Below are positions 16,203 through 64,000 of a stretch of DNA of 64,000 nucleotides, in pieces. The stretch is taken from the NCBI GenBank assembly GCA_018873225.1, contig JAEILZ010000001.1:4712001-4776000 (forward strand), written 5' to 3'. The DNA comes from [Phialemoniopsis] sp. UDSM-2020 (lineage: Eukaryota; Ascomycota; Sordariomycetes; Thyridiales; Thyridiaceae). Below the pieces are notes generated by a model. The model was given only the letters and a program-made list of their open reading frames with translations, had not been told where the DNA came from and made no database searches. How positions within the stretch are numbered: the stretch's first letter is position 1; each line of letters begins with the position of its first letter. Made by a program: the position numbers and the translations under genes.

Positions 16203-17996
16203 CTATCTTTTCACTAAATCATCCATCGCGATGTAGGAGAAGGTCACAGCGGGCCCCAAGGTAGCTCCGGCTCCTGCGTACCGTGTCCCCATGACGCTTG
16301 CGCTGACATTACCGGCTGCATAAAGCCCAGGAATAGGCTTCCCATCTTCTTTCAGCACTCGCGCATTCTCATCAGTCAGAAGACCGCCCTTGGTCCCCAG
16401 GTCTCCGGGGTAGATCCTGACGGCATAGAAGGGGGCTTTAGCAACCGTGCCTAGATTCGGATTGGGTTTGTGGCTTGGATCACCGTAGAAATTGTCGTAG
16501 GGATTCTTTCCGCGGTTGAAGTCTTCGTCGACACCAGTGGCGGCGAACCCATTGAATCGGGTGATGGTGCTCTGCAGGTTCGTGGGATCAACGTTGATTT
16601 GCTTCGCTAGTCCCGCTATGCTGTTGTCCCTGTATATGAAGCCATTATCGATCGCCCATTGGGGGGTGGAGCGAGGAAAGAATCTGGAAAGCATGTATTT
16701 GTTGCGATGGGCCTGATCCAGAATGATCCAGGAGGGTACGGCAGCAGCATTGGTCTCGTGATGCTTGTTCATGATGACTCCGAAGTCATTGTAGCACCCG
16801 GACTCGTTCACAAACCGTGAACCATTGCCATCGACAATAATCGAATGCGGGAACGAACGAACTGATAGGTCAAAAATGGGTGTTTCGCCAACCAGTATCA
16901 TGGGCATCCACCATGCTTCATCCATCATAGCAAGGGCGGCGCCAATTCTTTGCCCAGCCAGGATCGCATCGCCTGTGTCGCCTGGCGAGGCCGCACTCCA
17001 GGAAGTGTTCCTTCCTTTGTTCTGAAAGGTTTCGCGCATACCCGAGTTCTTGGCAAATCCACCAGAGGCAAGTAAGACGCCATTTCTGGCTCCGAGTCTT
17101 AATTTCTTTCCATCTCTCTCTGCCACTACTCCCGTGACCGCCCCAGTCTCGTCTGTAATCAACTCCACTAGGCCAGTTTCACGCCAGATTTCCGTGTTTT
17201 GCTGCTTGTTGAGAAGAAGTAATCGAGCAACCAATGCCTTCCCGAACGACACGGCTTTCTGGCCGGCCAAAATCCGCAACATGGTACGTGTAATGATTCC
17301 GCTCGCCTTGATGAAGTCCTTGAAAGTCGAGCCAATGCGATAGATAGGCGGGACCTGCTCGGTGTAGCATGCTGGAGCTGGATCCTGAGGTAGCCGAACC
17401 ATATGTTGCCAGTCTCCGAGTTTCTTGAGGTCGAAAATGCCGGGCTCAATCGTCCGCCCAAATGATGTCGAGCCAGGTTCCAAGCAGTGGTAGTCGGGAT
17501 AGCCCTTGGCAGCGTGCCACTCAAAACCGAGATCCTCCAGAAATTTCACCATCTTGGGGCTCTCGTTGATGTATGCCAGCTTGCGCTCCTTTGTACTCGA
17601 TGGAGTACCAGGTGGGATCAGAGCTTCGAGGTATGTGAGCGCACGCTCAGGGCTATCTTCTAGACCGGCGGCTCTGGAGACATGATTGTTGGGTACCCAA
17701 AGCGCACCACCGGAGTAAGCACTTGATCCGCCGATTTTGGGTGTCTTCTCAATGACCAAGGGCTCCAGCCCATGGAATTTGGCGCGCAGAGCAGCCGTGA
17801 GACCGCCGGCTCCAGTACCGACTATGATGATATCGGAGATCTTGTCAAAGCCTTTTGCCTTCAACGACCTCGCCATCGCCATACGGGCTACCCTCGTGGA
17901 GTTGACACCCACGGGCAGACCGAGAGAGATGCAAGGGCGCATGATTCGGGGCCAAGCGCCGCCATGGCGTCTTGTCACACGGGTGAGGAACGGCAT
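16203..17996 (-). CDS. FAD-dependent dehydrogenase of the 3-ketosteroid delta1-dehydrogenase (KstD) / fumarate reductase family
   Basis: The intronless gene encodes 597 residues from the ATG at 17996; the frame is open further upstream but has no ATG there. The N-terminal dinucleotide motif IIIVGTGAGGLTAALRA binds FAD, followed by GGSSAYSGGALWVPNN. The C-terminus has the KstD hallmarks GTKGGL, PGLYAAGN and the ASVMGTRYAGAGATLGPA block, whose Tyr corresponds to the catalytic Tyr near the KstD C-terminus. These enzymes remove hydrogens next to a ring ketone. In this cluster it may desaturate or aromatise a cyclohexenone-type ring before hydroxylation. It is divergent to the epimerase-like gene. 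The basic N-terminus (MPFLTRVTRRHGG) could be a targeting sequence. Confidence 0.85.
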   Translation of the reverse strand: MPFLTRVTRRHGGAWPRIMRPCISLGLPVGVNSTRVARMAMARSLKAKGFDKISDIIIVGTGAGGLTAALRAKFHGLEPLVIEKTPKIGGSSAYSGGALWVPNNHVSRAAGLEDSPERALTYLEALIPPGTPSSTKERKLAYINESPKMVKFLEDLGFEWHAAKGYPDYHCLEPGSTSFGRTIEPGIFDLKKLGDWQHMVRLPQDPAPACYTEQVPPIYRIGSTFKDFIKASGIITRTMLRILAGQKAVSFGKALVARLLLLNKQQNTEIWRETGLVELITDETGAVTGVVAERDGKKLRLGARNGVLLASGGFAKNSGMRETFQNKGRNTSWSAASPGDTGDAILAGQRIGAALAMMDEAWWMPMILVGETPIFDLSVRSFPHSIIVDGNGSRFVNESGCYNDFGVIMNKHHETNAAAVPSWIILDQAHRNKYMLSRFFPRSTPQWAIDNGFIYRDNSIAGLAKQINVDPTNLQSTITRFNGFAATGVDEDFNRGKNPYDNFYGDPSHKPNPNLGTVAKAPFYAVRIYPGDLGTKGGLLTDENARVLKEDGKPIPGLYAAGNVSASVMGTRYAGAGATLGPAVTFSYIAMDDLVKR

Positions 17997-18188
17997 CTGG
18001 TATGACTTTGTCGAACACACGCCACGTTCCTGCGATGGGTGGCTCAAATACTCGGTCCGAAGGATTCTTTGTAGAGTTTTCTGCTGTTCATTTCGAGTTG
18101 GAATAGAAAATAATGAACACTTTTGCCCCCTCAGTCCGGGGAGCTGTAGTGCTCGAAAAATCCCACGCTTATTTTGTAGAGCCAATCG

Positions 18189-25022: not shown

Positions 25023-26483
25023 GATGGAAGTTCGTAAGTACAAGAAGCCATGACTAGACTTGCCGCACCATAAAGACAGCTGTGCTAACTCGGAGAGGTG
25101 CGTACCAGCGGATTGGGATGATCTTCCCGCAGGTAAGTGTCGGACAAGCTCCAAATGCTTCGTTTCACAAGATAACGGGGGATCTAGTCGACGGGCTTCC
25201 ACAAGGTTGTGCATGGGGCCTCTGGGACCGTGATGGAAAGAAAGATGTGTATGGCACGCTTAACCTATTGACACCACAAGTGGTTCAGGGAGCCCTGGGA
25301 GAGGCGACTGACGGCATACACGTCTCGTTGAAGTAAGATGACCCTTCTATACATGTCTCTGGCGAAGCCATGTGCGCAAGCACAAAGAGCTGATGATCGA
25401 AGTTGGCCATTGGGATCTATCAAGACGCCCGGATTCGGACGTAAGCCCCTGAGGCACAAAGTTGTCAGCTTTTCGGATACCCCTGGCGGCTTCCGTGGCT
25501 ATGATGATGAGGTATGGTTCATGACACAACCCTCCAAAAGGTTTCCTGCTCATTTCATTCAGGTTGAGTTCAACACACAGATCAGCAGCCAGTGGGACAG
25601 TCTTTGTACGTCTATAATTCCAGAAGGTGGACAGCGATAAGATCTGGCCTCGACTTACAGACTACACAGGTCACTACCACCACCAAGGAACCACTCTTGC
25701 TTATAATGGCATCAGAACGAGCGTAAAGGATTTGACTCAGCAGTTTGGGACAGAAGACAAGAAGCAATTGTTTCCGACCCTTAATCGTAGGTGCAGCGAA
25801 GTACTGTAGCAAGCATTGTCGCATGCCTGACTGGAGTCACAGATTGGCATCACCGTGGCGGAATTGTGGCTCGCGGAGTCTTGATAGACTACAAGGCGTA
25901 TGCTGATTCCTTCGGCCTGAGGATGAATCTTTTCGATAACGACCAAATCACGATCGAAGACATCGAGAAGATTGCGGAATACCAAGGCGTCGAGTTCAAG
26001 TATGGAGATATTCTGATCATCCGTTCCGGCTTTACCGAAGCTCTAACAGGCATGACCGGGGAGGAACAAGCCGAGGTGTTGGCGTCATACCGAACATGCG
26101 GTGTTGAGGGGACTGAAGAAGCTGCCAAATGGATCTGGAACAAGCATTTCGCTGCAGTCGCCGGTGACATGATGGGGTTTGAGCACAGTCCTTGTATCAT
26201 CAATGGCAAGGATGGGAAAGGTGGCGAAGACCTAGGCAAGTACCATTGGAAGCAGCTCAGGGACCAGGACCAAGAGATGTTCAGCTGACGCAAAAGCAAA
26301 TACACAGTACTGCATTCGTACCTTCTATCCCTGATGGGAATGCCCATTGGCGAGCTATGGGACCTGAAAGCTTTGTCCGTACATTGTGCAAAGATCAAGC
26401 GATACAGCTTTCTGCTTACTTCTATTCCGTTGAATGTACCAGGCAGTATTGCTTCGCCGCCAAATGCCATCGCTATATTCTAG
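25023..26483 (+). CDS. cyclase-family (kynurenine formamidase-like) hydrolase
   Basis: The gene is split into many exons. Supported ones end at 25132 and then run 25188-25332, 25403-25511, 25563-25605, 25670-25786, 25843-26235 and 26308-26483. Joined, they read PADWDDLPAVDGLPQGCAWG, then SIKTPGFGRK, NHWHHRGGIVARGVL, and a tail MGMPIGELWDLKALS. This is the fungal cyclase (PF04199) family of metal-dependent hydrolases related to kynurenine formamidase and isatin hydrolase; HWHHRGG carries probable metal ligands. The last intron (26236-26307) has a GC donor (G|GCAAGT); reading through it would stop early at 26288 and lose the conserved C-terminus. The first exon and start are unresolved: the ATG at 25023 before a good donor gives a phase mismatch. 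Confidence 0.75.
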
Positions 26484-26637: not shown

Positions 26638-26797
26638 TTCAGCGCCGGCAACCATCAGTGCTCTCCGTGAGGGTTCTCCTACCAAATTCTCATAGTTAGC
26701 CATATAGCAACAAATGTCTGCGAGAGAGATCTCCAGGCGCGTAGCACACTGAATGAAGGAGAGAGGGATCGAAGACCAGAAGCATCGTTCGACTGAA

Positions 26798-28426
26798 ATG
26801 TCATCTTTCACTACAGATGTCGTTATTGTGGGCGCCGGACCCGTGGGCCTCACATTGGCAAACTTCCTCGGGCTAAGTGGGGTGCGCGTCTTGGTGGTTG
26901 AGAAGCTTGACACAATCATCAATTATCCCAGGGCCATTGGCATAGATGACGAGTCTCTCCGTCTACTCCAAGCGCTCCAGCTCGTCGACGACGTAATCCC
27001 ACATACGACGCCGAACCACTCCATGAGGTTCTTGACCGCTGGGGGACGCTGCTTCGCCGACTTCAAGCCCACTACCTTGGACTTTGGATGGCCACGACGT
27101 AATGCCTTCATCCAGCCTGAAATCGACAAAGTTCTTTTGAAAGGATTGGAGCGCTTTCCAAATGTGGAAGTCCTGTTTTCCCAAACTTTGATCTCGGTAG
27201 ATCAGGACGAGAAGGGCGTGACGGTGGTCACCGACAAGCAGAATTTCCGGTCACAATACCTTGTCGGGGCTGATGGAGGCAGCAGCTTTGTAAGAAAGCA
27301 TGTCGGGATCTCCTTCGAAGGTACCACGGCGCCGAACAAGTGGATAGTCGTCGATATCCGCAACGACCCTTTAGGTATTCCCAACCTCTACGTGTGCTGC
27401 GACCCAATGCGACCATATGTCTCTGCTGCACTACCCCACGGAATACGAAGATTCGAGTTCATGGTCATGAGTGACGAGACTGAGGATCAGCTAAGAGAAC
27501 CTGCGACCATGAGAAAGCTCTTCGCCAAAGTGGTACCGGATCCCGACAACATTGACATCATCCAGAGTCGGGTATATAGTCACAACGCCCGCTTGGCCGC
27601 TCGATTCCGCTCCGGACGCGTTTTGCTTGCAGGCGATGCAGCCCACATCATGCCCGTCTGGCAGGGGCAAGGATATAACAGCGGGCTAAGAGACACTCTT
27701 AACCTGGGTTGGAAGCTCGCTCGCGTCGTCAAAGGGACTCTAGATGCTCGGATTCTGGACACCTTCGAAACGGAGCGTCGCACACACGCAAAGGCGATGC
27801 GCGACCTTTCAGTGCTGACCGGTCACATATTCGCGCCCCCGTATCGCTGGCTAGGTTGGCTCCGCGACGGGCTCACCTGGTTCCTGGCTTACCTACCCCA
27901 AGTTAAGGCGTACTTCTTGGAGATGAGGTTCAAGCCTATGCCGCGATACGGTGAAGGGGCGGCCTTGGTCCTCGAAAAGGACCCCCGGGCACCTGTCGGC
28001 ACCATGTTCATCCAACCATTCGTTTTCAGGGACCAAGAGGGAGGACTCGCAGAGCCGGTGAGGTTTGACGATATCATGGGATCCGACAAATTTGCATTGA
28101 TATCCTGGGGCACGAATCCGCTTTGGGGCCTGTCCCGTTCCCAGATTGCCGCATGGAGACAGCTGGGGACTGCATTCATTGAGGTGCTACCGGCATGTCA
28201 GCTTAGAAGCCCCCAGGCTCCAGCCGAAGCAGAAGAAGGCGTAACCCGAGTCGGCGACAGCAAAGATGGCACACTCAAGAAGTATTTCGGCAATTATCCG
28301 CGCTCGATTGCCATCATTCGGCCCGATCGTTTTGTCGGGGCCTTAGCCATTCCTCAGACAATCGGCAGGATATCGGATCAGTTTTTTGACGCCATAGGAT
28401 TTGTACCTGATGGCGATAGATCTTAA
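26798..28426 (+). CDS. mhpA: FAD-dependent aromatic hydroxylase, 3-(3-hydroxyphenyl)propionate hydroxylase (MhpA)-like
   Basis: The intronless gene encodes 542 residues; from memory E. coli MhpA has 554. The class A flavin monooxygenase motifs are all present: GAGPVG at 12-17, the DG motif in LVGADGGSSFVR, and GDAAHIMPVWQGQGYN from residue 279. Long strings such as PRAIGIDDE, FGWPRRNAFIQP, CCDPMRPYVSAALPH and FLEMRFKPMP are those I recall from bacterial MhpA, so this is far closer than the general fungal phenol hydroxylases. The expected reaction is NAD(P)H-dependent ortho-hydroxylation of a 3-hydroxyphenyl-alkanoate to a catechol. The start was chosen at 26798 (MSSFTTD); an in-frame ATG at 26753 is possible. 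It is followed by the B, C and D homologues. Confidence 0.92.
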   Translation: MSSFTTDVVIVGAGPVGLTLANFLGLSGVRVLVVEKLDTIINYPRAIGIDDESLRLLQALQLVDDVIPHTTPNHSMRFLTAGGRCFADFKPTTLDFGWPRRNAFIQPEIDKVLLKGLERFPNVEVLFSQTLISVDQDEKGVTVVTDKQNFRSQYLVGADGGSSFVRKHVGISFEGTTAPNKWIVVDIRNDPLGIPNLYVCCDPMRPYVSAALPHGIRRFEFMVMSDETEDQLREPATMRKLFAKVVPDPDNIDIIQSRVYSHNARLAARFRSGRVLLAGDAAHIMPVWQGQGYNSGLRDTLNLGWKLARVVKGTLDARILDTFETERRTHAKAMRDLSVLTGHIFAPPYRWLGWLRDGLTWFLAYLPQVKAYFLEMRFKPMPRYGEGAALVLEKDPRAPVGTMFIQPFVFRDQEGGLAEPVRFDDIMGSDKFALISWGTNPLWGLSRSQIAAWRQLGTAFIEVLPACQLRSPQAPAEAEEGVTRVGDSKDGTLKKYFGNYPRSIAIIRPDRFVGALAIPQTIGRISDQFFDAIGFVPDGDRS

Positions 28427-28737
28427 CAGTAGAATGATTGTCAACTTCGAGATGGTGGACATTCTTAGTCGACAGGTTGCGGCAACTTCTAACGTCAATT
28501 TATTGAGTGGTCTAAAGGAATTGTTGTGAAGATCTAAGGGTACAAGCTCACGGCGTGTATATCAAACCTGCGAGCCCGATGGCAATTACCGCACAGGGAC
28601 TATGAGATTGGTGAAAACTGTATCTTCCATCTTGTTACATCCTTTCATTCTATGAGTGTGTGTAGATAGACTGGCTTTCGTGGCCTAATTAGGTAGCGAG
28701 AGCTGGGGTGAACTAAGTGCAGCCCAACATCATGTGC
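28427..28737. other. short convergent intergenic region
   Basis: The 3' ends of mhpA-like and mhpB-like face each other here. Nothing else was seen. Confidence 0.5.
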
Positions 28738-29685
28738 TCATTCCGTGACTGATGTGGCTGTAATACCGCCGAAGCCAGCGATCCATTCAGGAATTGGCCT
28801 GTAATATCGACTTGTAACCTCGTAAGGGCTGAACATGGACATCGCAGACGCTGCGGCCACCCACGTCTTGACCTCGTGTGTCGACGCGCCTGCGACGTCC
28901 GTCACCTCCTGGCTTGTCATAGTGTCCAAGGACGACATCGCGTTGTTGGCAATGGTGTCGAGGAACCTGCGATCCCATTCTGGCGCGAGGGCATGCAGTG
29001 TGGACTGGTCTTCGACGAAATCTTTTGCAGCCTTGATGGTGCGATTCGTTCTCGCTTCCCGATCTTCTGGAGAGAGATTCTTGCCTGCCCCTAGGAGCAC
29101 CTCCCGCACCTCTTCAGGAGCCGTGGCGTACTGTGGCACCGGTGGCTGATGAGACAGTCCGCCAGACGCCAAGAAGAGCACCCTCTTGTTCAGTGTCTTG
29201 CAGAAGCGTCCCACTGTCTCGCCCAATATTCTAGCCCGCCTGAAGGGCGGCAAAGGCGGAGCGACACAGTTCACGAAGACCGGGATGATGGGGTACTTTT
29301 CGATTCCACCGAGCACGAATGCCAGAGGCTGTGCAAAGCCATGATCCACCTGCATCCTCTGAGAGGTAGCTATATCCACGTCGTGCTCCATGCAGTACTC
29401 GGCCAGTTTCGCCACCAGTTCCGACGCAGTAGAGAGCGGTCCCTTTGGTGTGTTGAAGTCGCCTATGGCGAAGGCCTCTACGCCGACACAGAATGATGGC
29501 ATCACGTCGTGAAAGAAGCCATTGAAGTGATCGGGCGCGAATAAGACGACAAGCTCTGGGTCAAACTCGGCGACCTTTTGGCGCGTGTTCTCGATGTAAT
29601 CGTCGATTTCTCCCAGAACGGCCTGAGAAGGATTGACCAGCCCGATCAGCGGCGTGTGCGAGATGCATGCCAAGAATCCCGACAT
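28738..29685 (-). CDS. mhpB: LigB-type (class III) extradiol dioxygenase, 2,3-dihydroxyphenylpropionate 1,2-dioxygenase (MhpB)-like
   Basis: The intronless gene encodes 315 residues; E. coli MhpB has 314 as I recall. With the start at 29685 (MSGFLAC), the catalytic Asp-His of QVDHGFAQPL falls at 114-115 and the His of SGGLSHQPPVP at 179. These are the residue numbers established for MhpB. ELVVLFAPDHFNGFFHDVMP near the N-terminus and the tail RYYRPIPEWIAGFG are further signatures. The enzyme would open a catechol next to its two hydroxyls (meta cleavage) using Fe(II) and O2. It is transcribed opposite to mhpA-like and toward it. An in-frame ATG at 29718 would add 11 residues. No cluster motif was found in its promoter. 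Confidence 0.93.
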   Translation of the reverse strand: MSGFLACISHTPLIGLVNPSQAVLGEIDDYIENTRQKVAEFDPELVVLFAPDHFNGFFHDVMPSFCVGVEAFAIGDFNTPKGPLSTASELVAKLAEYCMEHDVDIATSQRMQVDHGFAQPLAFVLGGIEKYPIIPVFVNCVAPPLPPFRRARILGETVGRFCKTLNKRVLFLASGGLSHQPPVPQYATAPEEVREVLLGAGKNLSPEDREARTNRTIKAAKDFVEDQSTLHALAPEWDRRFLDTIANNAMSSLDTMTSQEVTDVAGASTHEVKTWVAAASAMSMFSPYEVTSRYYRPIPEWIAGFGGITATSVTE

Positions 29686-30251
29686 TGTTCCAATGCGTCT
29701 TTCGGGGCCTTCGAACATGGGCTACTGTCTCCTTGGAGGTCACCAGAGAGGGTAGTCTGTGTAGGAGCGGCGGAGGCTGGAAGAAGGTGAGTTGCGTCAA
29801 TTACGTATATATTTTCTATCTGACAATGTGAATGTAAGATCTACGACAGCAGCATCAGTGCCCTGGCTGGCCCACATCGGAAGCGGAAAAGGTGGCAGAG
29901 ATGCAGTTCCGCATCCTTAGCAACGCAACACCGTCCCGACGACGGACATGCCGATAGCGCATGATGAGTACGGTCACACCGAACCATAGATTGGCAATCA
30001 TGGTCGACTGCAAAGTCTAACTCCTATTACCTAGGTCTAATTCTCTAATCGTGCAGAAGCTAAGTCTTCGAGCTCCTTCAGTGCGTGGTGAGTAGACTTA
30101 ATGAAAAGTTCTTATCTAGGACGGAGGACTATGATCACATGTCTTCTGACTATCGTGTCAAATTGGGACGTCTCGTCTGAATATGATGTGAGCTGTGATA
30201 AGGTTTGGCAGTACTGCAGTATCAGATGCAGATCAGATTTATAATTCGGCT
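29686..30251. other. intergenic region between mhpB-like and mhpC-like
   Basis: This is the promoter of mhpB-like (minus). I looked for the CCACAATAYCC and CGG-N2-CCG motifs and found neither. No further gene was seen. Confidence 0.5.
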
Positions 30252-31109
30252 TTACGCTTTCAGGAAGTCTATCACGATTCTATTGAATCTATCGGCGTGC
30301 TCCCATTGAGCCCAATGGCCACATCTGTTGAACAGATGAGTTTCTGAATTGGGAATCCCGGCAGCCAGTCTGAGCGCACCGTCCATTGGCATGACGCGAT
30401 CCTGCCGGCCCCAGATGATCAAAGTCTGTTGTCTGATCTCGGGAAGCCTGGCAGTAACATCGGGATACTGCCTAGGATTCAGGGAGTAGCTCTCCACAAA
30501 GTTCTCCAGGTGGTCTTCCCTCTCCAGCATATTCTTTAGACGAAGTTGTAGAAGATCGTATGTGATGGAGGTACTGTCGTAAACGAAGATGTTGTTGAAT
30601 CTTTTCAGGTTTTCCACGGTAGGATTCCGATACAGTTCAAGTACATGCTTCATACCCTCTGTCGGGGTAGGGATAAACAGACTGACGCCTCCCGTACCAC
30701 CGCCCATCAGAATTAGTTTCCTAACGTGTGTTGGGTACTCCAAGGTGAATGCGACGGCACTATGTGCGCCCATCGAGTTTCCTACCAGATGGATCTTGCT
30801 GAGGCCCAGTCCATCGATGACGCCCTTGACAGCTCGGGCGTTTAGTGACGAGCGCGAGCCTGAGTTGACGATGGAGTCACTTTGGCCCCAGCCCGGGAGA
30901 TCAATGAGCAGGACCCGATATCCGCTCTCCACAAACGGGTCAACATTTCGGTGGAAGTTTGCCCATCCAGTAGCCCCAGGGCCGGACCCATGAAGCATGA
31001 CCACGACTTCTTCACCATCACCGCAGTCGTTGTAATGTAGTCGTAAGGGCTTTTCGCCCTCTTGAATAACGATGAACTGTTTTGTATTCTCCGCAGTGAT
31101 GGGAGCCAT
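30252..31109 (-). CDS. mhpC: alpha/beta hydrolase, meta-cleavage product hydrolase (MhpC)-like
   Basis: The intronless gene encodes 285 residues from the ATG at 31109 (MAPITAENT); bacterial MhpC has about 288. The oxyanion-hole region is [15 protein letters not shown], the nucleophile elbow [12 protein letters not shown] carries the Ser, [10 protein letters not shown] carries the Asp, and [11 protein letters not shown] carries the His. [11 protein letters not shown] and [12 protein letters not shown] also match MhpC, which hydrolyses the C-C bond of the ring-fission product to a 2-hydroxydienoate plus a dicarboxylic acid. The frame is open 29 codons further upstream with a hydrophobic run, but conservation begins after MAPITAEN. 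It is divergent to mhpD-like, with a variant cluster motif between them. Confidence 0.92.
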
Positions 31110-31268
31110 CGTGATATCTGAATCTGGCTGGCGGATGATGTTCAGGTTCGCCAACAACAACAAAAGCATCGAAAGACACGCGAGATCGCATTTCACAGCT
31201 CTTGATCAAATACAACATGGACCAAGTATCGAGGACAGGGTAGCTTGGTGCCACGCGACGAAGATTCA

Positions 31269-31279
31269 GGGTAATGTGG
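31269..31279 (-). promoter_or_regulatory. CCACAATAYCC-like motif (one mismatch) between mhpC-like and mhpD-like
   Basis: GGGTAATGTGG lies in the divergent promoter, 160-170 bp from the mhpC-like start and 179-189 bp from the mhpD-like start. Confidence 0.4.
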
Positions 31280-31457
31280 CTGCGGAAGCTCTTTCGAAGG
31301 AGAGGATAAAGTGGCGTGGTATCTCAATCATGCCTCTTTAGGGGAGCCACTTAGCAGGGTGTGCAGATTCGAGCAGACCTATGCAAAAAAATACTGAAAG
31401 TCAATGCGGCTCATTCGCACATGCAAAGTCTCGCCACAATCTTCCTCGAATTAATTC

Positions 31458-32264
31458 ATGACCATTATGGAGACCATCGTCACTCAAGCCGCCCAGGTTC
31501 TCCGCAACGCGCACAGCACTGGAAATCCTATCCCCCCTCTTCGGAAACTATTCAAAGGGCTAGATGTCAACGATGCATACGCAGTTCAGAAACGCAATAT
31601 CGATCTGCAGCTTGCCCAAGGTGCTCGAATCGTCGGGTCCAAGATCGGCCTCACCTCGGCAGCAGTGCGGAAACAGATAGGTGTGGATCAGCCAGACTAC
31701 GGGTTACTGTTAGATCACATGGAATGCGCCGAGGGCGAGCCGATTCCTGTGTCTCGCCATATGCAGCCCAAGATCGAAGCAGAAGTGGCTTTCATTCTCG
31801 GTAAAGACCTCGATTTTCCACGGCCCACAGTCGTCGATGTGATCCAGGCGATCGAACATGTCGTTCCCGCGTTTGAGATCGTTGGCAGTCGCATCGAAAA
31901 CTGGAATATCGGTTTGGTCGACACGATTGCCGACAACGCATCTTCGTCGGGGTACGTTTTGGGCACACCCGTGCGCAGGCTCGACGGGTTAGACCTGCGC
32001 AGCTGTGCCATGACTATTACGAGCGCGTCCACGGCGCATGGGACAGTGCTGTCCTCGGGAGACGGTGCGGCCTGTCTCGGGAATCCACTGAACGCGGTAG
32101 TATGGCTTGCAAGAGTCATGCACGAACGTGGGTTTCCCTTGAAGGCTGGTAGTCTTATTCTCTCCGGTGCATTGGGGCCAATGGTGACTGTAGAGCCTGG
32201 AGAGACCTACAAAGCGCACATTGAAGGCCTTGGAGATGTGACGGCAGTCTTTGCCGCCGAATGA
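31458..32264 (+). CDS. mhpD: 2-keto-4-pentenoate hydratase (MhpD)-like
   Basis: The intronless gene encodes 268 residues; E. coli MhpD has 269 as I recall. Landmarks of the FAH-type hydratase fold are GSKIGLTSAAVRKQIGVDQP, KIEAEVAFILGKDL with the metal-binding acidic residues, FEIVGSRIENWNI, DTIADNASSSGYV and LSGALGPMVTV. The enzyme adds water to 2-hydroxypenta-2,4-dienoate to give 4-hydroxy-2-oxovalerate, the step after MhpC. Two close start codons exist (31458 and 31467) and cannot be separated here. The next enzyme of the bacterial route, the aldolase MhpE, is not found in the window. Confidence 0.92.
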   Translation: MTIMETIVTQAAQVLRNAHSTGNPIPPLRKLFKGLDVNDAYAVQKRNIDLQLAQGARIVGSKIGLTSAAVRKQIGVDQPDYGLLLDHMECAEGEPIPVSRHMQPKIEAEVAFILGKDLDFPRPTVVDVIQAIEHVVPAFEIVGSRIENWNIGLVDTIADNASSSGYVLGTPVRRLDGLDLRSCAMTITSASTAHGTVLSSGDGAACLGNPLNAVVWLARVMHERGFPLKAGSLILSGALGPMVTVEPGETYKAHIEGLGDVTAVFAAE

Positions 32265-32505
32265 TAATGGGAAATCAATTTAACCTCCAGAAGCCCGAGA
32301 CACACAAGCACGCCATCATGTTTACTCCTGCCACTCTACCCGTTGCTGGTGGGGCTGTGGCCAAGATGAAATTTAATAGTCTTAAACATTCCTTGCCGCC
32401 TCACCTGTGTTGACTCAAGTTCTACTGTTACCAAAATTGTCCTCCTTTCCAATAGGATTGCTTCCATCAAAGCTGACCCAACAAAGAGTTGCGTTCGTAA
32501 TTATC

Positions 32506-33322
32506 ATGTCTTTCAGCGGCAAAGTAGTCGCCATCACTGGAGGCGCATCGGGAATCGGCCTTGCCACGGCAAAACTACTAGCATCAGAGGGTGCAAAGCT
32601 TGCCTTGGCCGATGCCCAGGACAGAGCTCTGGTGGATGCCGGGAAGGAGATTGCCGCTACAGGAGCCGAGGTGGACTGTACCTTGCTGGATGTGCGACAG
32701 CGAGCTGCTGTAGAGCAATGGGCTCAAAAGACGGTGTTACGATTCGGAAGAATCGATGGGCTGGTGACCTGCGCTGGTGTCACCGGTAGGCAGACCTTGG
32801 TAGCCGATGTCCAGGATATCGAGGATGATGACTGGGACTTTGTCTTTGATGTCAATCTCAAGGGCACCCTCAACAGTCTAAGGGCCATCATACCCAGTCT
32901 TGATAGCGGAGCGTCGATCGTGACGCTTGCTAGCTTTGCTGGACGTGCAGGCCTTGCTAAGTACGGCGCTTACGTTGCCTCGAAGCATGCGGTGGTAGGC
33001 TTGTCCAAGACTGCGACTGCAGAGCTGGGACCTAAGAATATTCGGGTGAATTGTGTCTGCCCGTAAGTCTTTTATTTCCCCGCTTGAGCAAGTTTGGCGA
33101 ATAACTGCTGATCGATTGCCTTCTTCAAGAGGTCCAATCGAGACACCTATGATAACAGAGGCCAACACCTCGGGAACAGAGCAATTCAAGCAGTTCGCAC
33201 CTTTGCGAAGGAATGGTCAGCCAATGGAGGTTGCAAATCTCATACGATGGCTACTTTCTAGTGGTTCCTCGTTCGTGACAGGCACGACACAAGTGGTTGA
33301 TGGGGGCTTCCTGAACCAATAA
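32506..33322 (+). CDS. classical short-chain dehydrogenase/reductase
   Basis: Two exons (32506-33062 and 33130-33322) give 249 residues; the intron interrupts the codon after VCP and is in phase. Motifs: VAITGGASGIGLATAK for NAD(P) binding, LVTCAGV, the Ser in VTLASFAG, YVASK as the catalytic Tyr-Lys, and the C-terminal GTTQVVDGG. These are all features of an active classical SDR. It probably oxidises or reduces an alcohol or a cis-diol of the pathway. The gene lies directly downstream of mhpD-like on the same strand but, unlike it, has an intron, suggesting a fungal origin. The start at 32506 (MSFSGKVV) fits the family. Confidence 0.87.
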
Positions 33323-41401: not shown

Positions 41402-41412
41402 GGATATTGTGG
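41402..41412 (-). promoter_or_regulatory. CCACAATAYCC cluster motif upstream of the VOC gene
   Basis: GGATATTGTGG, the exact complement of the motif, lies 141-151 bp upstream of the VOC start in the divergent SDR/VOC promoter. Confidence 0.6.
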
Positions 41413-41552
41413 CTTTAGGGTTGCTAGATGACAGGAGAGAAATCTGTTTCAACCCTGTCCACAAAATCGTTACCGAAATTTCTGTAGGGCATTGTCTTTT
41501 GCTGTGTCGGCGAGTTTCGGCGTCAAAGATTCCCTCCAAGTTCACAGATACC

Positions 41553-42578
41553 ATGGCTCCTCAGCGTGGGTCACACGATCGCCTCAACCATGTGTCGCAC
41601 TGGGACATCAACGTCACCGACCTCGAACGGTCGAGAGAGTGGTACGAGGCCAACACAAACTTGCGCGTTGTGCATCGTACGTCAGCGTCGCAAGACTTTC
41701 CAAGCCTCAACATCACGGGTGGCAGCTTCAAGGGCTACATGTTGAAAGACGAGACACTGCCTGCTGGGTCTCCGATGATCCACCTCGTCGAGTGGAAGAC
41801 GCCCAAGTCAGTAGGCAAGCCCTATTCCTCCCACTCCAACGTGGGTTGGTATCGCATGATCGCAGTCGTTCCAAGCATCGACGAGGCACGCAAAACGGTG
41901 ATTGCGAACGGGACCGAACCGTTCCACCCTACCTTTCGCACTCCACTCCGCATCAATCCCCACATGCCAGAGATGGACTTCCAGATCTTCATCGCGCCTG
42001 ATCCAGATGGATTCAGCGTCGAGTTCTGCGATGCATCGGCATTGATGGGCCCCGGCCAAAGGCCTCAGGTCCCGCTCATGGTGGCTCCCAACACAGCTCA
42101 GCTCGAAAGGAGTGTGCCCTTCTTCGCCGACGTGATTGGCCTGGACTTCATAGCTGGAGTCCAGACTGATGGCCAGGTCTTCAACGCCTGGGATACCTCC
42201 GGAGGCAAGACCGGCTTCACCGGCGCATTTTACGGCGTTCGTGGAGCAGGGTCCTGTTTCTGGGAGTGCCTGCAGTGGAACGATTCGCCCAACCACGCAA
42301 CACCCTACAAAGAGGGCAACCATGTCGGTGCTGTCCGGCTATCAATCGAAGTTGACGACATTGAGGCCGCACACGTTGCTCTCAAGGAGCAATCTCGTGC
42401 ATTGGGATATGATGTATTCATCGGCGAAATAGAAACATGGGATTTGGGACCTGAAATGGGTGCACGCAAGGTTGTCAACTTCCTAGACCCTGAAGGTGTA
42501 GCGTTTCAATTCATTCAACAGCAACTGGCCCCATTTCGAGCTCTTCATCCGTTCGGGGTGGGTGCTCAGTTGCGATAG
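41553..42578 (+). CDS. two-domain VOC (glyoxalase/extradiol dioxygenase fold) protein
   Basis: The intronless gene encodes 341 residues from the ATG at 41553. Two VOC modules are visible: residues about 12-160 begin LNHVSHWDINVTDLERSREW and end DPDGFSVEFCDAS, and about 175-325 run from LERSVPFFADVIGLDF to FLDPEGVAFQFIQ. In the first module a His and a Glu sit where metal ligands are expected. In the second the Glu position is Gln and the first His is absent, so it does not look like a standard catechol 2,3-dioxygenase, whose metal site is in the C-terminal half. It may be an isomerase, a lyase or an atypical dioxygenase. Its promoter carries the exact cluster motif. Confidence 0.8.
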   Translation: MAPQRGSHDRLNHVSHWDINVTDLERSREWYEANTNLRVVHRTSASQDFPSLNITGGSFKGYMLKDETLPAGSPMIHLVEWKTPKSVGKPYSSHSNVGWYRMIAVVPSIDEARKTVIANGTEPFHPTFRTPLRINPHMPEMDFQIFIAPDPDGFSVEFCDASALMGPGQRPQVPLMVAPNTAQLERSVPFFADVIGLDFIAGVQTDGQVFNAWDTSGGKTGFTGAFYGVRGAGSCFWECLQWNDSPNHATPYKEGNHVGAVRLSIEVDDIEAAHVALKEQSRALGYDVFIGEIETWDLGPEMGARKVVNFLDPEGVAFQFIQQQLAPFRALHPFGVGAQLR

Positions 42579-63417: not shown

Positions 63418-64000
63418 TCAGTAGTTGCAGATGCCCCCGACGTCATCGTCGACGGTCCACGTCCCCGCCAGGCCGTTGACCTCGACCTCCTCGGTCTGCA
63501 GCGCGCCCTCCCCGTCCTTGCCGGCGAAGAAGTCGCCCGCGCCCTCGCGCTTCATGTTGCGGCTCATGAAGCGCCGCGTCCACTCCTCGACCGCCGGCTC
63601 GCCCGTCTCGTCGCGCGCCTGCTTGAGGAAGCTGATGAGCGCCGTGCCGCCCGTGCCCTTGAGGTTCTTCTTCTGCTCCTCTCCACCCTTGTTCGCGGTG
63701 TGCGCCTCGAACGCGATGCCCACCGACGCAGTGGCCAGGTTGCGCTTCTTGGCCGGCCCGCCTCCGCGCGGGGGCGCGGTGACGGGGTTCGGCGCCTGGG
63801 CGGTGACGGAGCCGCGCCGGCGCACGGCCTCGGGGCTGCGCGAGCGAGACCGCGCGCGCACCTCGCGTGAGGGCAGGACGATGTACCGGCTCACGATGCC
63901 GATGTGCTTGTCGCGCATGGCGCGCAGCATCGACAGGCAGCCGTCGTAGGCGATGCACAGCGGCTTGTCGTCGGGGCGGGACTCGACGAACTCGCGAATG
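63418..64000 (-). CDS. indoleamine 2,3-dioxygenase, C-terminal part (runs off the window)
   Basis: The frame is open to the right edge and ends at the stop at 63418-63420. It codes IREFVESRPDDKPLC, then LRAMRDKHIGIVSRYIVLPS, and later LKGTGGTALISFLKQARDET. These two blocks frame the proximal heme side of fungal indoleamine 2,3-dioxygenases, which cleave tryptophan to N-formylkynurenine. The conserved GTGGT loop is intact. Between them lies an insert of about 65 residues, rich in Arg, Ser, Pro and Ala, that I do not remember from other family members. The gene is very GC-rich and produces long antisense ORFs. The N-terminal heme-binding part is outside the window. Confidence 0.82.
   Translation of the reverse strand, partial: IREFVESRPDDKPLCIAYDGCLSMLRAMRDKHIGIVSRYIVLPSREVRARSRSRSPEAVRRRGSVTAQAPNPVTAPPRGGGPAKKRNLATASVGIAFEAHTANKGGEEQKKNLKGTGGTALISFLKQARDETGEPAVEEWTRRFMSRNMKREGAGDFFAGKDGEGALQTEEVEVNGLAGTWTVDDDVGGICNY

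What the first reader, a model, noticed from the sequence alone, without database searches (positions are those of the whole stretch)
26798..32264. Bacterial-type mhpABCD meta-cleavage pathway in a fungal genome
Four adjacent intronless genes encode full-length homologues of MhpA, MhpB, MhpC and MhpD. Lengths (542, 315, 285, 268) match the E. coli enzymes as I recall them. Catalytic residues are in place: Asp114-His115 and His179 of MhpB even keep the bacterial numbering. Fungi degrade aromatics mostly by intradiol (ortho) cleavage, so a clustered, apparently complete 3-(3-hydroxyphenyl)propionate-type extradiol route is unusual. Inference: it was acquired from bacteria and embedded in a fungal cluster with its own regulators and transporters.
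Basis: partly seen in the sequence, partly recalled or inferred. Interest (0 to 1): 0.95.

Follow-up and report, generated by a model that had tools for sequence, protein, structure and literature searches.

The report
Bacterial ring-cleavage pathway in a fungus
A mould's chromosome carries four neighbouring genes of bacterial kind that together should open and dismantle a plant-type aromatic ring by a route that we did not find described as a complete pathway in fungi.

Summary
Confirmed: four intact intronless genes at 26798-32264 encode full-length MhpA, MhpB, MhpC and MhpD homologues, 57.6, 55.1, 62.5 and 49.2% identical to an E. coli strain's, catalytic motifs kept. They lie inside an 8.58-Mb contig of a 44.2-Mb genome, beside a gene best read with four introns. 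Named relatives occur in Fusarium, Exophiala, Knufia, Rhinocladiella and Zymoseptoria. In trees the fungal MhpA, MhpB and MhpC group together within proteobacterial rows. This supports transfer from bacteria, then spread or patchy loss in fungi. Corrections: strands are + - - +, no operon; MhpE and MhpF give no match over cut-off in the whole genome (positive controls 62, 83), so the last steps must be borrowed; nearest bacterial kin differ between MhpA (Marinobacter type), MhpC (sphingomonad/oxalobacter type) and MhpD (outside the clade of most mhp-locus hydratases), so capture of one sampled operon is not shown; only the cyclase neighbour is linked in a second genome. Most likely function: hydroxyphenylpropionate breakdown to succinate and 4-hydroxy-2-oxopentanoate. 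Substrate and activity are inferred.

The parts
26798..28426 (+). mhpA-like: FAD-dependent 3-(3-hydroxyphenyl)propionate hydroxylase homologue, 542 aa (557 aa from the upstream ATG at 26753)
   Evidence: PF01494 262 bits; NF004827 785.6 bits (cut-off 966, not passed) and NF004831 558.9 (cut-off 546, passed); motifs GAGP, GDAAH, GQGYNS kept
28738..29685 (-). mhpB-like: class III extradiol dioxygenase, 315 aa (326 aa from the upstream ATG at 29718)
   Evidence: PF02900 172.4 bits; NF009907 438.1 (cut-off 549, not passed) and NF009910 408.9 (cut-off 291, passed); nearest solved structure 8k04, 397.7 bits; Asp114, His115, His179
30252..31109 (-). mhpC-like: alpha/beta-fold meta-cleavage-product hydrolase, 285 aa
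   Evidence: PF00561; MhpC 1u2e/9ijk 427.8 bits against 314.7 for BphD 2og1; GNSMG, GRQDR, GHWAQW
31458..32264 (+). mhpD-like: 2-hydroxypenta-2,4-dienoate hydratase, 268 aa
   Evidence: PF01557; NF008461 317 bits (cut-off 350, not passed); 8ih6 263.4 and 1sv6 256.6 bits; motifs GSKIGLT, VDQPDYG, IEAEVA, AFEIVGSRI
25181..26288 (+). PF04199 'cyclase' family gene, best read with four GT-AG introns (25333-25402, 25512-25562, 25606-25669, 25787-25842); first exon start not fixed; adjoins mhpA in F. mundagurra too
32407..33322 (+). short-chain dehydrogenase next to mhpD, at least two exons; membership inferred from position
   Evidence: PF00106/PF13561
33581..36311 (+). Zn2Cys6 transcription-factor gene, at least two exons; regulator role inferred from position
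   Evidence: PF00172 in the first ORF; the long second ORF matched no Pfam family

Best explanation
A working proteobacterial meta-cleavage module was acquired by ascomycetes and is kept in this genome as four separately transcribed genes. MhpA hydroxylates a 3-(hydroxyphenyl)propionate or hydroxycinnamate to the 2,3-dihydroxy compound; MhpB opens that ring beside the diol (extradiol cleavage); MhpC hydrolyses the ring-fission product to succinate (or fumarate) and 2-hydroxypenta-2,4-dienoate; MhpD hydrates the latter to 4-hydroxy-2-oxopentanoate (reactions as known for the bacterial enzymes, recalled). The bacterial last steps (MhpE aldolase, MhpF acetaldehyde dehydrogenase) are missing and are probably replaced by host enzymes, for instance one of the HpcH/HpaI-family aldolases, yielding pyruvate and acetaldehyde. 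Shown here: sequence identity, intact motifs, clade structure, linkage, absence of E and F over cut-off. Inferred: activity, substrate, separate transcription, regulation, the replacement aldolase.
For: Intact ORFs and motifs. Closest solved relatives of B and C are E. coli-type MhpB and MhpC, of D hydratases of this kind; A has no close solved relative (best 128 bits). Fungal rows group together within proteobacterial rows for A, B and C. A, B and C recur together: at least two of the three share a contig length on 9 contigs, all three on 5. The cyclase gene adjoins MhpA in F. mundagurra too. No close second copy in the genome: next best by score 34% for A, none for B, 34% over 114 residues for C, 35% for D. 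Codon usage of A-D pooled correlates 0.75 with neighbouring fungal ORFs, 0.26-0.70 with the mhp genes of eight bacterial loci. 18 HpcH/HpaI matches, some pieces of one gene, exist in the genome.
Against: No transcript or activity data. MhpE and MhpF give nothing over cut-off. MhpC's best NCBIfam model is BphD, below its cut-off; A, B and D stay below the cut-offs of their highest-scoring models. MhpD alone correlates only 0.29 in codon usage, and one bacterial locus reaches 0.70 with the pooled genes, so codon usage discriminates weakly.
Confidence: 0.75

Rival explanations
1. Same enzymes, different natural substrate: the module serves melilotate (3-(2-hydroxyphenyl)propionate, from coumarin or cinnamate), a phenolic made by the neighbouring P450, or detoxification of a plant defence phenolic, rather than growth on 3-(3-hydroxyphenyl)propionate.
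For: P450, SDR, ADC and VOC genes lie at 36-42.6 kb. A review reports melilotic acid as a product seen in A. niger given cinnamate (PMC12388069, passage). Pseudomonas HcdABC shows similar enzyme types acting on 3-(2,4-dihydroxyphenyl)propionate (PMC6222606, start of abstract in the listing).
Against: Nothing here links the P450/ADC/VOC genes to A-D in a second genome; the sequence cannot choose among close phenylpropionates.
Confidence: 0.4
2. MhpD is not part of the acquired module: A-C came from bacteria, and D belongs to another bacterial or fungal hydratase lineage that became a neighbour; the route may end at the dienoate.
For: A 99/93 branch separates 22 proteobacterial hydratase rows (18 of the 19 rows taken from loci, 4 from plasmid loci) from window MhpD; the best plasmid hit is Paracoccus, 58.8%.
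Against: It starts 348 bp from mhpC, is closer to bacterial hydratases than to the genome's own second copy (35%), and NF008461 (MhpD) is its best curated family. The D tree has very long branches and a broken outgroup, and one mhp-locus row (L029) also falls outside the 22.
Confidence: 0.25
3. Members of ordinary, widespread fungal families, without recent bacterial ancestry.
For: Flavin hydroxylases are common in fungi; 27 further MhpA-like matches, some pieces of one gene, occur in this genome. LigB-type enzymes are known in other fungi.
Against: Those other matches are at most 34% identical wherever they cover 100 residues or more. Below the fungal group the listed hits are 55-60% (B), 59-64% (A) and 63-70% (C) identical, and those with organism names are Proteobacteria (only the best 120 of each are listed).
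Confidence: 0.02
4. Bacterial contamination or a chimeric contig.
For: The genes are intronless and bacterial in kind.
Against: Interior of an 8.58-Mb contig, no N in the window, a spliced neighbour on one side and fungal transcription-factor genes on both, and fungal-group relatives at up to 83 (A), 84 (B) and 79% (C), among them named Fusarium proteins at 81-82% for A and B.
Confidence: 0.01
5. A relict that is no longer used.
For: MhpE/F lost or never acquired; no expression data.
Against: Four intact ORFs; the MhpB Asp/His/His residues and the MhpC GNSMG and GHWAQW motifs are kept in the window and in all 18 (B) and 10 (C) fungal-group proteins aligned.
Confidence: 0.07

Closest known systems
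E. coli/Klebsiella/Pseudomonas mhpABCDFE pathway (3-hydroxyphenylpropionate degradation)
   Same: Homologues of A, B, C and D with catalytic motifs; physical order A-B-C-D as in 53 of 80 bacterial loci
   Different: Strands + - - + in place of one operon; no E or F over cut-off in the genome; MhpR and MhpT were not searched for, no such family appeared among the window ORFs scanned; 49-63% identity to E. coli
Sphingomonad mhpB-mhpC pair on contig L039, beside genes that I read as an SDR and a ferredoxin-reductase-like protein (translations, no family search)
   Same: Belongs to the bacterial group nearest to fungal MhpC (P0135)
   Different: No MhpA homologue on that 7.9-kb contig; the fungus carries MhpA
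Fungal LigB-type extradiol dioxygenase CDO3 (DOPA-dioxygenase-like) of Ceratocystidaceae
   Same: Class III extradiol dioxygenase domain in a fungus (PMC8896014, passages)
   Different: The authors could not identify the entire meta-cleavage pathway in any of their fungi (one gene apart); CDO3 is described as similar to DOPA dioxygenase. Not compared by sequence here
Pseudomonas mandelii HcdABC
   Same: Flavin hydroxylase, extradiol dioxygenase, hydrolase for a hydroxylated phenylpropionate (start of abstract in the listing)
   Different: Bacterial operon; not compared by sequence here

Membership tests
mhp meta-cleavage pathway | MhpA: group A flavin hydroxylase of the HPP type | tested here: met
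   NF004827 785.6 bits (below 966), NF004831 558.9 (above 546); FAD motifs
mhp meta-cleavage pathway | MhpB: class III extradiol dioxygenase with Asp114, His115, His179 | tested here: met
   NF009910 408.9 (above 291), NF009907 438.1 (below 549); residues in place
mhp meta-cleavage pathway | MhpC: Ser-Asp-His meta-cleavage-product hydrolase, nearer MhpC than BphD | tested here: met
   427.8 bits to MhpC 1u2e against 314.7 to BphD 2og1; motifs kept. BphD model TIGR03343 344.4, below 462.15
mhp meta-cleavage pathway | MhpD: 2-hydroxypentadienoate hydratase of the mhp lineage | tested here: inconclusive
   Best family NF008461 317 bits, below 350; outside the clade of most mhp-locus hydratases in a weak tree
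mhp meta-cleavage pathway | MhpE aldolase and MhpF acetaldehyde dehydrogenase | tested here: not met
   None over cut-off in the genome (best 42.6 bits for E, no match for F); both over cut-off in 2 of 2 enterobacterial control genomes. The tool's own 14 control genomes gave none over cut-off
mhp meta-cleavage pathway | Co-directional operon | tested here: not met
   + - - +
mhp meta-cleavage pathway | Catalytic activity and substrate | not testable with these tools
   -
Bacteria-to-fungus horizontal transfer | Fungal clade nested inside bacteria | tested here: met
   A, B and C, with long outgroup rows in A and C; D not testable for want of fungal rows
Bacteria-to-fungus horizontal transfer | One donor operon for all genes | tested here: inconclusive
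   A with Marinobacter type (99/95, 98/92; Pseudomonas placement p=0.055); B unresolved; C with sphingomonad/oxalobacter type, Marinobacter grouping rejected p=0.0009

The most novel reading that the evidence does not exclude
Ascomycetes of three classes share a horizontally acquired 2,3-dihydroxyphenylpropionate meta-cleavage route, a ninth central ring-opening pathway in fungi. It was put together from at least two proteobacterial lineages, stripped of its aldolase and dehydrogenase, joined to a fungal cyclase-family gene, and passed on or lost as a cluster.
Probability: 0.45. Interest if true: 0.85.

Novelty: new variant of a known kind. Interest (0 to 1): 0.72.

Why it matters
[quoted passage not shown] A 2026 curated database lists eight central ring-opening intermediates in fungi, without 2,3-dihydroxyphenylpropionate (PMC13094099, introduction). 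This locus supplies a concrete, testable gene set for such a route, and a case of a multi-gene bacterial catabolic module working, if it does, without an operon in a eukaryote.

Tried and rejected
Looked for the organism's name: a 5.8S rDNA pattern gave no match, the trypsin family only weak matches (37.4 and 27.1 bits). Myosin I resembles 6ui4 (Fusarium graminearum by recall; the call names no organism) at about 86% by my eye count of the printed alignment; I judge from recall that a Fusarium would be closer, so the species stays unknown. Rejected contamination and ordinary fungal families (see rivals). An enterobacterial donor is disfavoured for A (p=0.006) and B (p=0.025) (groups named after first trees were seen). 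A first, unrooted B tree could not show nesting, so it was rebuilt with four Rhodococcus rows and Sulfitobacter as outgroup. The C outgroup L108 is very long, and the A tree carried the tool's warning that two long rows, L100 and L109, meet; both were repeated without those rows. Considered a second hydratase-aldolase cluster at C1:1.197-1.203 Mb: of 8 ORFs given to Pfam one matched, a transcription factor; the hydratase piece and the aldolase match themselves were not among frames that gave a hit, so this stays open. Sigma-70-like promoter matches (3 found, 4.8 expected in shuffles) say nothing.

Literature: nine searches of the open-access library ran. None of the titles and abstract starts listed describes an mhp-type pathway in a fungus; in six of the nine only part of the matching papers was listed. 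I saw passages of three papers and one section, no whole text.

Rows chosen by hand: B tree all 18 fungal-group proteins plus the window, 11 of 102 other listed hits, 16 of 80 loci, 7 plasmid rows. C tree 10 fungal-group proteins plus the window, 40 of the other 110 listed hits, 11 loci, 3 plasmid rows; one search used 8 of those 10 plus P0133. A tree 10 fungal-group proteins plus the window, 18 other listed hits, 15 loci, 2 plasmid rows. D tree 19 of 78 loci with a D match. One search used 7 of 10 (A) and 10 of 18 (B) fungal-group proteins plus the window.
Full report
Four uninterrupted ORFs lie at 26798-28426 (+), 28738-29685 (-), 30252-31109 (-) and 31458-32264 (+). Pfam gives FAD_binding_3, LigB, Abhydrolase_1 and FAA_hydrolase. 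The highest-scoring NCBIfam models are the MhpA, MhpB and MhpD equivalogs and, for C, BphD; by sequence against solved structures C is nearer MhpC (427.8 bits) than BphD (314.7 bits). Identity to an E. coli strain (locus L077) is 57.6, 55.1, 62.5 and 49.2% for A, B, C and D. Curated cut-offs are passed by one of the MhpA models (NF004831) and one of the MhpB models (NF009910), not by the highest-scoring models of A, B, C or D. The motifs examined are kept in the window for all four. In the fungal-group rows of B (18) and C (10) the catalytic Asp/His/His, Ser, Asp and His are kept; B shows variants VDHAF and PILEW in at least one row (P0017 has both), and in A (10 rows) at least one row has a gap at the first FAD motif. 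D could not be compared with other fungi.

The host is a fungus. The window is C1:4712001-4776000 of a genome of 44.18 Mb in 11 contigs; contig C1 is 8.58 Mb. Around the four genes lie fungal transcription-factor genes, a P450, a PDR-type ABC transporter and a HET-domain gene. The gene just upstream, a PF04199 'cyclase', is read best with four GT-AG introns; spliced so, it aligns with residues 4-270 of a Fusarium mundagurra gene model. That gene model (P0243, 801 aa) fuses the cyclase to MhpA, which shows the same two neighbours in the same order there. The species is not identified; a myosin I comparison speaks against Fusarium (eye count and recall).

Distribution. Of the 120 best-listed hits each, 18 (MhpB), 10 (MhpC, 11 with the unnamed P0133) and 10 (MhpA) form the fungal group. 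Only 6 of 18, 3 of 10 and 4 of 10 carry fungal names: Fusarium sp. DS 682, F. beomiforme, F. austroafricanum, F. mundagurra, Exophiala aquamarina, E. oligosperma, Knufia peltigerae, Rhinocladiella similis and Zymoseptoria tritici. The other members are called fungal from their place in the trees. Two long MhpA hits between them (P0247, P0252) look bacterial, carry internal duplications, and were not counted. Fusarium, Knufia and Zymoseptoria belong to Sordariomycetes, Eurotiomycetes and Dothideomycetes; Exophiala and Rhinocladiella go with Knufia's order by recall. Equal contig lengths tie at least two of A, B, C together on 9 contigs and all three on 5; in E. oligosperma the locus tags are 009962 (A), 009964 (B) and 009965 (C). 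That contigs of equal length are the same contig is inferred.

Trees. MhpB: 53 rows, the 19 fungal rows are one clade (100/100) inside Proteobacteria when rooted on four Rhodococcus rows and Sulfitobacter (the Sulfitobacter row is long). MhpA: 46 rows, 11 fungal rows one clade (100/100) grouping with Marinobacter, Halomonas and Amphritea (99/95); the two outermost rows are long and meet, and a set of 31 rows without them gives the same grouping (98/92). MhpC: in 65 rows the 11 fungal rows hold together at 82/83, and with P0133 at 100/100; the clade lies with rows from Sphingomonadales, Oxalobacteraceae and Alcaligenes (99/98, one very long outgroup row). In 38 rows without outgroup the same grouping has 99/99, and forcing the fungal rows to Marinobacter is rejected (p = 0.0009). 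Groups for these tests were named after first trees had been seen, so the p values are indicative. MhpD: 32 rows; a 99/93 branch sets 22 proteobacterial hydratase rows, 18 of the 19 taken from the loci and 4 from plasmids, apart from the window protein, whose nearest rows are from Caballeronia and Paracoccus plasmids; very long branches and a broken outgroup weaken this tree. So transfer from Proteobacteria is well supported for A, B and C and likely for D, but a single donor operon is not shown: either the donor carried a hybrid set, or there was more than one acquisition, or the true donor is unsampled.

How complete is the pathway? In the 80 bacterial loci kept of 189 found with MhpB, 53 hold A-B-C-D in that order on one strand, 23 hold B-C-D, 2 C-A-B-D, 1 B-C and 1 B alone within the DNA held. 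The fungus has the same physical order but strands + - - +, so each gene presumably needs its own promoter. With four genes the same order is a weak sign (2 of 24 orders). MhpE and MhpF give nothing over cut-off in the whole genome: best score 42.6 bits (cut-off 286) and no match (cut-off 282.25), against 583-599 and 462-471 bits in two enterobacterial genomes searched as positive controls; the tool's own 14 control genomes gave no match over cut-off for either. The genome does hold 18 HpcH/HpaI-type matches, some pieces of one gene, none in the window; that such an aldolase cleaves 4-hydroxy-2-oxopentanoate here is inference. Succinate released by MhpC would need no further pathway enzyme.

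Codon usage of the four genes pooled resembles the window's fungal ORFs (0.75); singly A, B and C (0.66, 0.59, 0.51) and D (0.29) fall within the spread of single fungal ORFs against the rest (0.26-0.74), D at its low end. Eight bacterial loci reach 0.26-0.70, so the measure is weak. Other MhpA-like matches in the genome do not exceed 34% over 100 residues or more; MhpB has no other match, MhpC 34% over 114 residues at best by score, MhpD one at 35%.

Literature. [quoted passage not shown] A 2026 database names eight fungal ring-opening intermediates, 2,3-dihydroxyphenylpropionate not among them (PMC13094099, introduction; its main text has no occurrence of 'extradiol' or 'mhp'). A 2025 review calls extradiol dioxygenases less common in fungi (PMC12388069, passage). 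Public records already name single fungal proteins of this kind, so the genes are visible in databases; a described pathway I did not find in nine searches of an open-access library with capped listings.

Verdict: a real, probably working, horizontally acquired extradiol module.

Noticed in passing
16203-18185 (-): FAD_binding_2 protein, best match 3-ketosteroid-delta-1-dehydrogenase NF009478 at 652 bits, below its cut-off of 789.
   Followed up: no
41409-42578 (+): VOC/glyoxalase-superfamily protein (PF00903) without an NCBIfam match at E 1e-10; whether it is a type I extradiol enzyme was not tested.
   Followed up: partly
C1:1197218-1202616 of G000 (L118): The genome's second MhpD-type hydratase lies about 4.4 kb from an HpcH/HpaI aldolase match; 8 ORFs of the stretch given to Pfam showed one transcription factor.
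   Followed up: partly
P0247, P0252: Two bacterial-looking MhpA proteins of 732 and 668 aa carry a long internal tandem duplication.
   Followed up: no
L106 7986-8783: The closest plasmid relative of MhpD (Paracoccus aminophilus pAMI4, 58.8%) sits near an SDR and an aromatic amino acid ammonia-lyase.
   Followed up: no
63421-63999 (-): Match to indoleamine 2,3-dioxygenase (PF01231) at the window's end.
   Followed up: no
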